From Alphaproteobacteria bacterium (GTDB lineage Bacteria > Pseudomonadota > Alphaproteobacteria > CACIAM-22H2): DNA of 64,000 bases. Of the stretch, positions 21,194-22,881 are shown one piece after another. The DNA lies in the NCBI GenBank assembly GCA_016124335.1, contig WGNX01000010.1:124001-188000 (forward strand). The letters run 5' to 3'. Every line of letters begins with the position of its first letter. Position 1 is the first letter of the stretch. A program made the translations under genes and the position numbers. The notes below the pieces were generated by a model. That model was given only the letters and a program-made list of their open reading frames with translations. It was not told the origin of the DNA and searched no databases.

Positions 21194-22087
21194 CTACGTC
21201 GCAAATTCACGAACTCCGCCAGTTACAAAGGAAGCAACTTCTGTAAAGTTGTTCTCTGCAATGTAATCTGGTTTGATGGCTTGAGTTGCTTTGCTTAGCT
21301 CTCGTTCACGAACGACGTCCTCATCGGTCCAGTGCGTAACTCGAACGAGTTTCTCATACGCGCCAATCGCATGCCGAGTTCCATACTTAGCCCAAACCGC
21401 AGTGACGCCGACATCCTTGGCCATTTTGACATCACGGGTAATGCTATCTCCTACGTAAGCCGCTTCATGCGGCGCTACGTTGAAGTCGGCGAGAATCTCT
21501 CTAAGTACATGCGGATCCGGCTTGCGCCTGTGCCGTTTCAACTGGTGGAATTGTCTCGCCACTAAGGCGTCAAATTTCTCAGAGCTATTTTTTGAAGTCG
21601 GATGCGATTGGCCGGATGTTTCGCGGCAATAAACCATAGAAAAAAATCCGATCAAATTTAGCCTCTCCAATCGCAGCTTAGCCGCGTACGCGTTGCTTTC
21701 TGTATGACCAACAATCAGCGCTCCGCTTTCCTCAATTTTTCTCAAGCCGGCGCCAACACCCGGATATTCCTTCAGCTCCCTAATTCTAACGCTGTTAAAT
21801 TTGTGAAACGCTGAATCAAGGATGGCCTTCAACTCGTCGCGATTTTTCCCGGGAAACCGGGACAAAACGGTTCTTGTTTCAAGAAGTGCAAACGGGTGTT
21901 CCGAATCGTGCCAACGCCGATGTACATTGCGCAAGTCGTCAAGCAAAATTTCTCGGTCGCAAGCAAGGATTTCCACAGCCTCATCAACCATAGCATAAAA
22001 TGATGCAACAAAAAAGCTCACCCAATCATAAAGGGTGTTATCTAAATCACAAATTAGTAGTCTGTATGAACGATCCAACTGAATCAT
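21194..22087 (-). CDS. HAD-superfamily hydrolase in low-GC island
   Basis: LLICDLDNTLYDW (DxD motif I), IVGHTES, KPDPHVL, AAYVGDSITRDVKMAKDVGVTAVWAKYG; ORF opens at 22165, likely start M at 22087. Confidence 0.82.
   Translation of the reverse strand: MIQLDRSYRLLICDLDNTLYDWVSFFVASFYAMVDEAVEILACDREILLDDLRNVHRRWHDSEHPFALLETRTVLSRFPGKNRDELKAILDSAFHKFNSVRIRELKEYPGVGAGLRKIEESGALIVGHTESNAYAAKLRLERLNLIGFFSMVYCRETSGQSHPTSKNSSEKFDALVARQFHQLKRHRRKPDPHVLREILADFNVAPHEAAYVGDSITRDVKMAKDVGVTAVWAKYGTRHAIGAYEKLVRVTHWTDEDVVRERELSKATQAIKPDYIAENNFTEVASFVTGGVREFAT
21200..21207 (+). repeat. Direct repeat copy 1, CGCAAATT, at left edge of island
   Basis: Identical octamer at 22861-22868. Confidence 0.35.
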
Positions 22088-22165
22088 TCCCCTAATTAGG
22101 CTCGTCACGATTCCACGCCCAACATCCCAGCAATAGGCGCATGAAACATAGTTTAAGAAAAACAA

Positions 22166-22777
22166 TCAAAGTTTAAAAGTTGCCGTGAAAATCGCTAGGG
22201 CGAGAATAATCAACACGAGCGTTGTGCCGTTATAGAATTTAGAAATCTTCTCATATGCTGTGATCTTGTCTTGGCCGGAGTATTGGCGGCAGCTAACAGC
22301 CGTTGGCGCCAATTCGCCACCGGCCAATTCGAATTCAGCATCACTATTTTGGCTAAAGTGGGAAACAGCTTGCGTCAAACCAAGCTCGACCGGCAATACA
22401 TGAGTTGCGATTAATCTAGCCTCAAGTTCCCTTCCAAAGGCAACAGCGCCACGAAGCATCTTGTGGTAGACGACCAAGTCGAGTTGACGGACCATGTGGA
22501 TTGCTGCGGCACTCACTAAGACAATAAGGGCGGACACATGAACCGATTGCCCGAAAACATCAAAATACATTGTGTGCTCGCTGTCGGTTCGCCCCAAGAG
22601 TACTACCGCCAAGCCAAGCGCAGTGACAACGAAGGTTAGCCCTAGCTGTCGCGCCTTGGCGGACATTTCATTGAAGTGCATTTGGGTTTCGATTGTCTTT
22701 TTCCAAACCTCTATTCGAAGTTTGGCGAGTTCGTCAGAAGAAACGGGATCGACTCCTTCAGAACCTATGTCGTTCAT
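22166..22777 (-). CDS. Small membrane protein of unknown function, first gene of the island operon
   Basis: MNDIGSEGVDPVSSDELAKLRIEVWKKTIETQMHFNEMSAKARQLGLTFVVTALGLAVVLL; TM helix pair then C-terminal TM TTLVLIILALAIFTATF; RBS AAGGTGATAAT before ATG. Confidence 0.8.
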   Translation of the reverse strand: MNDIGSEGVDPVSSDELAKLRIEVWKKTIETQMHFNEMSAKARQLGLTFVVTALGLAVVLLGRTDSEHTMYFDVFGQSVHVSALIVLVSAAAIHMVRQLDLVVYHKMLRGAVAFGRELEARLIATHVLPVELGLTQAVSHFSQNSDAEFELAGGELAPTAVSCRQYSGQDKITAYEKISKFYNGTTLVLIILALAIFTATFKL

Positions 22778-22787
22778 ATTATCACCT

Positions 22788-22854
22788 TTTTGGTAAATAT
22801 ATGCGCCACAAGCCTTTCAAGTATACCTACTAATAGTTGTTGATTCTACCAAAA
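22788..22854. promoter_or_regulatory. Promoter region of island operon bounded by inverted repeat TTTTGGTA / TACCAAAA
   Basis: Arms 22788-22795 and 22847-22854; AT-rich, TATACT on minus strand. Confidence 0.4.
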
Positions 22855-22860
22855 TGGAAA

Positions 22861-22868
22861 CGCAAATT
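22861..22868 (+). repeat. Direct repeat copy 2, CGCAAATT, at right edge of island
   Basis: Identical to 21200-21207; 14 bp from the lpdA stop codon. Confidence 0.35.
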
Positions 22869-22881
22869 TAGTGGATTTAAT

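What the first reader, a model, noticed from the sequence alone, without database searches (positions are those of the whole stretch)
21194..22870. Low-GC two-gene cassette: small membrane protein + HAD hydrolase inserted beside the TCA operon
This is the only clearly atypical block in the window. G+C drops to 21/60 at 22021-22080, against 40/60 just outside at 22921-22980 (hand counts). It sits between the aminotransferase stop (21178) and the lpdA stop (22882). The first gene encodes a roughly 200-aa protein with an N-terminal cytosolic helix, a TM pair and a C-terminal TM. The second encodes a HAD hydrolase with intact DLDNT and GDS motifs. A membrane protein coupled to a soluble phosphatase-like enzyme in an acquired, promoter-equipped cassette fits an effector/enzyme pair such as a defence or toxin-antitoxin-like module. 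That function is inference; I recognise no named system.
Basis: partly seen in the sequence, partly recalled or inferred. Interest (0 to 1): 0.8.

Follow-up and report, generated by a model that had tools for sequence, protein, structure and literature searches.

The report
Membrane-protein/phosphatase pair, likely anti-phage
Two foreign-looking genes inserted beside an ordinary metabolic operon form a distant, gene-order-reversed relative of a two-gene system already shown to protect E. coli from phage T7, and their phosphatase turns up elsewhere with quite different partners, which suggests a mobile defence module whose working is still unknown.

Summary
In detail: a 1,703-bp, 47% G+C block lies in a 66% G+C window, between the lpdA and aminotransferase stops. 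The closest genome lacks it; those two stops lie about 14 bp apart there. It carries a 203-aa three-helix membrane protein followed by a 297-aa HAD phosphatase with all catalytic motifs. This is not an unnamed system. Both proteins match PADLOC's 'Hydrolase' and 'Hydrolase-TM' models. I recovered the E. coli version between int and psu of P4-like satellites, the setting of the HAD-plus-membrane-protein system that Rousset et al. 2022 validated against T7. What is new is modest: the window belongs to a separate subtype, membrane gene first and HAD second, with its own membrane-protein clade (100/100). Its HAD groups with HADs whose partner is a metallophosphoesterase (the DS-9 layout, validated 2026), not with the P4 HADs. 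Across 47 loci the HAD is constant while partners swap: membrane protein in either order, fused membrane domain, metallophosphoesterase, or a PRTase-CE/PRAI cassette. Most likely mechanism (inferred): the HAD acts on a phosphorylated metabolite and works with the membrane protein to stop infected cells.

The parts
21179..22881 (.). acquired low-G+C block between the aminotransferase stop and the lpdA stop
   Evidence: 46.9% G+C, 8.9 sd below 1.6-kb windows; absent in G008, where the two flanking stops lie about 14 bp apart
22166..22777 (-). 203-aa three-helix membrane protein, 'Hydrolase-TM' family (first gene of the pair)
   Evidence: PADLOC PDLC03009 E=3e-14; no Pfam or NCBIfam match; AlphaFold pLDDT 89; 387 homologues
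21194..22087 (-). 297-aa HAD phosphatase with cap and family-specific HWT C-terminal extension (second gene)
   Evidence: PADLOC PDLC03008 E=3e-56; Pfam HAD_2 2e-18; catalytic residues invariant in 53 relatives; AlphaFold pLDDT 92.7
22778..22881 (-). A+T-rich leader of the pair, with ribosome-binding site next to the ATG
   Evidence: AGGTGAT upstream of ATG 22777; no sigma-70-like promoter found in it
19922..21178 (+). flanking aminotransferase (left border, not part of the system)
   Evidence: ORF; directly adjacent to lpdA in G008; no match to it in the lpdA loci of the other relatives; G005 has the pair in that interval
22882..24291 (-). flanking lpdA (right border, not part of the system)
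   Evidence: ORF; present in all 11 congeneric genomes

Best explanation
This is a horizontally acquired two-gene anti-phage module of the 'HAD hydrolase + TM' kind, in a distinct subtype with the membrane gene first and the HAD second. Inferred mechanism: the HAD, a cytosolic phosphatase, acts on a phosphorylated small molecule, most likely a nucleotide, that appears or changes during infection. It is held at, or signals to, the membrane protein, whose conserved cytosolic stalk couples it to the bilayer. The pair then arrests the infected cell, either by membrane disruption by the three-helix protein (slightly favoured) or by nucleotide depletion by the HAD. Shown here: homology, co-occurrence, fusion, intact catalytic residues, acquisition. 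Inferred: defence activity of this copy, the trigger, the substrate and which protein does the damage. The confidence given is for the defence-module identity; for the membrane protein as the damaging part it is about 0.45.
For: Both proteins match PADLOC models, and those models are met at 624-654 and 317-465 bits by the E. coli pair that lies between int and psu in P4-like satellites. Rousset et al. tested systems from exactly that locus, and a HAD-like hydrolase with a transmembrane protein specifically inhibited T7 (PMC9122126). Window HAD is 36% and membrane protein 29% (over 107 aa) identical to the E. coli ones. Of 47 family loci in GTDB genomes, 33 have the membrane protein adjacent or fused, plus two fused plasmid copies. 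Catalytic residues are invariant in 53 HADs of all layouts; polar residues Q32, H34, N36, R43, D100, Y104, H105, E119 are invariant in 73 membrane proteins. Pair G+C is below its flanks in 21 of 21 other loci checked. Neighbours are rich in defence genes: 171 PADLOC families hit among 135 neighbour proteins against 1 among 66 around generic HADs, including Cas1fv/Cas3fv, a type II methyltransferase and a GajB-like helicase.
Against: The window copy is remote from the tested one, has the opposite gene order, and its HAD groups with metallophosphoesterase-linked HADs instead of P4 HADs. No other defence gene was noticed near it; the genes I examined were housekeeping. No phage challenge of any close relative is known to me. 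The neighbour comparison is inflated by several models hitting one protein, and its control comes from other taxa. No fold match identifies the membrane protein as a pore.
Confidence: 0.8

Rival explanations
1. The HAD is the killing enzyme: a membrane-tethered nucleotide phosphatase that drains ATP/dATP-type pools on infection, and the membrane protein is sensor and anchor.
For: A CARF effector built as HAD phosphatase + four TM helices + CARF (Chp) sits in the membrane, dephosphorylates dATP, ATP and IMP and stops phage (PMC12715507). HAD catalytic residues are invariant and fusions tether the HAD to the membrane domain.
Against: Homology of the Chp HAD to this HAD was not shown; Chp toxicity tolerates mutation of HAD motifs. 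The same HAD lacks a membrane partner in the metallophosphoesterase and PRTase-CE layouts. The membrane protein has many invariant polar residues, more than an anchor needs.
Confidence: 0.35
2. Toxin-antitoxin-like pair: the membrane protein is toxic alone and the HAD neutralises it.
For: A small membrane protein next to an enzyme gene is a common toxin-antitoxin layout; the pair is mobile.
Against: The two are fused in nine loci, the HAD occurs with unrelated partners, and gene order differs between subtypes.
Confidence: 0.1
3. Metabolic or housekeeping gene pair that happens to sit beside the TCA operon.
For: HAD phosphatases are mostly metabolic (PDB neighbours are ordinary phosphatases).
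Against: Absent from 9 of 11 congeneric genomes; atypical composition; E. coli relatives lie in phage satellites and beside Hachiman; defence neighbours.
Confidence: 0.05

Closest known systems
HAD-like hydrolase + TM system of P4 satellites (Rousset et al. 2022, PMC9122126; PADLOC Hydrolase/Hydrolase-TM; 'Hydrolase-3Tm' in DefenseFinder lists, PMC11291487)
   Same: Homologous HAD (36%) and homologous three-helix membrane protein (29% over the conserved core), adjacent genes, mobile context
   Different: Gene order reversed; membrane protein in a separate 100/100 clade; HAD in a different clade; no satellite or integrase beside the window copy
DS-9 of DefensePredictor (metallophosphatase + HAD phosphatase, PMC13092281)
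   Same: An E. coli HAD with this layout is 43% identical to the window HAD and is nearer to it in the tree than the P4 HAD
   Different: Partner is a Pua-like + calcineurin-like phosphoesterase, not a membrane protein. That the E. coli pairs found here are DS-9 itself was not checked
CARF-HAD effector Chp of type III CRISPR (PMC12715507)
   Same: HAD phosphatase coupled to TM helices in anti-phage defence
   Different: Single protein with a CARF sensor; no CRISPR link here; HAD homology not tested
SLATT-domain membrane effectors
   Same: Long helical hairpin through the membrane with cytosolic stalk (resemblance only)
   Different: No Pfam SLATT match (none among the families shown) and no profile-profile similarity to SLATT_1 proteins, though those profiles were shallow

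Membership tests
HAD hydrolase + TM defence system (Rousset / PADLOC Hydrolase-TM) | HAD component belongs to the same HAD family | tested here: met
   PDLC03008 188.9 bits, E=3e-56; 36% identity over 272 aa to the P4 HAD
HAD hydrolase + TM defence system (Rousset / PADLOC Hydrolase-TM) | membrane component homologous, three TM helices | tested here: met
   PDLC03009 51.5 bits, E=3e-14; 29% over 107 aa to the P4 protein; three helices. Only the N-terminal two thirds align
HAD hydrolase + TM defence system (Rousset / PADLOC Hydrolase-TM) | two genes adjacent, same strand, HAD first then TM as in E. coli | tested here: not met
   Adjacent and same strand, but order is TM then HAD. The same reversed order recurs in 10 other loci, so I file it as a variant, not the canonical system
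HAD hydrolase + TM defence system (Rousset / PADLOC Hydrolase-TM) | protects against phage (T7) | not testable with these tools
   Only reported for the E. coli system
HAD superfamily phosphatase (C1 cap) | motifs I-IV: DxDxT, T/S, K, GDxxxD | tested here: met
   D14, D16, T18, T129, K189, D214, D219; fold match 2hoq, E=9e-11
SLATT domain | detectable similarity to SLATT profiles | tested here: not met
   No Pfam hit (none among the 25 families shown); hhalign probability below 1% against two small SLATT_1 alignments
DS-9 (metallophosphatase + HAD) | metallophosphatase gene beside the HAD | tested here: not met
   No such gene beside the window HAD
type II toxin-antitoxin | one gene toxic alone, the other neutralises it | not testable with these tools
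   Fused versions argue against

The most novel reading that the evidence does not exclude
A single HAD phosphatase family is the constant core of several anti-phage systems and its partner is exchangeable: a three-helix membrane protein, a Pua-like metallophosphoesterase, or a PRTase-CE/CARF-like/PRAI cassette. The shared HAD would then process a common, still unknown phosphorylated (nucleotide-like) infection signal, with the window as a new subtype that pairs a metallophosphoesterase-clade HAD with the membrane protein.
Probability: 0.4. Interest if true: 0.7.

Novelty: new variant of a known kind. Interest (0 to 1): 0.45.

Why it matters
Two separately published defence systems, HAD + TM (2022) and metallophosphatase + HAD (DS-9, 2026), carry a HAD whose function in defence is stated to be unknown. 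The tree here joins HADs of both layouts, plus a third layout with PRTase-CE, into one family with fully conserved catalytic residues. That predicts a common substrate or signal and makes the question testable with one enzyme assay.

Tried and rejected
SLATT membership of the membrane protein: rejected for lack of sequence or profile support. Fold search of the membrane protein against PDB and viral models: no significant match. Phage-record search with the HAD and viral-contig search with the membrane protein: none found. Plasmid search with the membrane protein: none at E<=1e-5, only via the HAD. Flanking repeats, integrase, tRNA or Rfam element as insertion agent: none. Gene names misB/misC given to the E. 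coli pair in one record: no paper found in the library. Toxin-antitoxin reading: no support. Vertical inheritance of the pair in the genus: not decided. G000 and G005 share site, order and orientation, but the G005 HAD is closer to another sequence (P0124) than to the window HAD in the tree.

Full report
Observation. The block exists as described. It spans 21179-22881 (1,703 bp) between the stops of a plus-strand aminotransferase and of the minus-strand lpdA. Its G+C is 46.9% against 66.6 +/- 2.2% for 1.6-kb windows elsewhere (8.9 sd), and GC3 of its genes is about 0.5 against 0.83-0.90 in neighbours. It holds two minus-strand genes: 22777-22166 (203 aa) and 22087-21194 (297 aa), both with clear homologues. 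No Rfam element, tRNA, integrase or convincing terminal repeat accompanies it, and a promoter was not seen by consensus scan.

Acquisition. In relative G008, whose LpdA is 96% identical, lpdA and the aminotransferase end about 14 bp apart: an empty site. Of 11 genomes held for the genus only this one and G005 have the pair. G005 has it directly behind lpdA in the same order and orientation, also at 49% G+C in a 63% contig. There the aligned neighbourhood resumes beyond the position of the aminotransferase, so that gene appears to be missing. In most other relatives a TRAP-type transporter or xerC-like gene lies behind lpdA (gene names from my reading of the ORFs), so this is a variable spot. 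Whether the two copies descend from one insertion is undecided: the HAD tree puts the window with P0122 and G005 with P0124.

Identity. Pfam and NCBIfam have no family for the membrane protein and only generic HAD models for the enzyme. PADLOC names both: 'Hydrolase' E=3e-56 and 'Hydrolase-TM' E=3e-14. I fetched the E. coli members by a distant DNA search. They lie between the integrase and psu of P4-like satellites next to tRNA-Sec and score 624-654 and 317-465 bits against the same models. Rousset et al. cloned systems from that psu-int interval and report a HAD-like hydrolase with a transmembrane protein that specifically inhibited T7; they proposed abortive infection (PMC9122126). The window proteins are 36% and 29% identical to the E. 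coli ones.

Anatomy. The HAD model (pLDDT 92.7) is a capped HAD phosphatase, nearest PDB entries 2hoq and N-acylneuraminate-9-phosphatase, with an extra C-terminal segment carrying a near-invariant HWT motif. D14, D16, T18, K189, D214 and D219 are invariant in 53 sequences of every layout aligned, so catalysis is presumably needed. The membrane model (pLDDT 89, pTM 0.79) is a long helical hairpin (14-62, 81-126) that runs from the membrane into the cytosol, plus a third membrane helix (174-200). Q32, H34, F35, N36, R43, D100, Y104, H105, L108, V112, E119, F181 and Y182 are invariant in 73 sequences. By hairpin register R43 should face D100 and residues 32-36 should face 107-111 (inference); this stalk is the likely site of HAD contact or gating. 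No solved or viral fold matches it significantly.

Family survey. One scan of GTDB genomes with the HAD alignment gave 62 loci, 47 of them true family. Layouts: membrane gene then HAD, 10; HAD then membrane gene, 16; HAD-membrane fusion, 7 (plus 2 on plasmids); metallophosphoesterase then HAD, 8 (plus E. coli/Klebsiella plasmids, where it lies between restriction genes and Hachiman); HAD with PRTase-CE, a CARF-like protein and a PRAI-like TIM barrel, 3 (Bacillota, Acidobacteriota); no partner seen, 3. The fusions show that HAD and membrane protein work together. The HAD-alone cases include one contig edge (L043).

Trees. In the HAD tree the window's layout groups with metallophosphoesterase-linked HADs (100/99), apart from the HAD-first, fused and P4 forms (94/98). 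In the membrane-protein tree the membrane-first form is one side of a 100/100 branch. So this is a subtype with its own history, and partners have been exchanged at least once. A HAD with a metallophosphatase partner was validated in 2026 as DS-9, with the HAD's role stated to be unknown (PMC13092281). I found E. coli genomes with that layout (35 of 5,426) but could not confirm they are DS-9 itself.

Context. Among 135 proteins flanking 14 family loci, 171 PADLOC families were hit at 1e-10; among 66 flanking generic HADs, one. The counts are inflated by redundant models and the control differs in taxonomy, but individual neighbours include Cas1fv and Cas3fv, a type II methyltransferase and a GajB-like helicase. 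The window copy itself stands alone among the genes I examined.

Mechanism. Shown: homologous pair, acquired, catalytic residues kept, natural fusions, exchangeable partners. Inferred: the HAD processes a phosphorylated metabolite, and together with the membrane protein arrests infected cells. I slightly favour the membrane protein as the damaging part, since partners vary while the HAD stays, but the HAD as nucleotide-draining effector is nearly as likely, given the Chp CARF-HAD effector that depletes ATP and IMP (PMC12715507). Verdict: a remote, reversed-order variant of a known anti-phage system whose mechanism is unknown.

Noticed in passing
L062:9410-13595, L064:9346-13658, L068:9415-13581: Five-gene cassette: ~190-aa 'MKVGPHS...YWGYSG' protein, HAD of this family, PRTase-CE (PF24390), CARF-like 360-aa protein, PRAI-like TIM barrel (PF00697). 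Conserved in Bacillota and Acidobacteriota, in L062 downstream of a helicase-like gene; an unnamed candidate defence system.
   Followed up: partly
L018:6352-8834: Pua-like + calcineurin-like phosphoesterase with HAD on E. coli/Klebsiella plasmids, between restriction genes and Hachiman; also in 35 of 5,426 E. coli genomes, mostly chromosomal. Layout equals DS-9.
   Followed up: partly
L020:5926-7419, L021:5971-7473, L045, L055, L056, L059, L060, L063: Single-protein HAD-three-TM fusions; in Rhizobium next to an ABC-three-component (DUF3732) system.
   Followed up: partly
window 22882; L009, L010, L012, L013, L015-L017: The position behind lpdA differs between congeneric genomes (aminotransferase, TRAP-type transporter, xerC-like gene, or the pair), so it is a variable site.
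   Followed up: partly
L084:7996-9496: RefSeq gives the E. coli P4 HAD and membrane genes the names misB and misC in one genome; no paper with these names was found.
   Followed up: partly
window 45532-46785 and 47823-49325: PAS-type sensor histidine kinase and PAS methyl-accepting chemotaxis-like protein in a mildly lower G+C stretch (58-61%); look ordinary, not tested.
   Followed up: no
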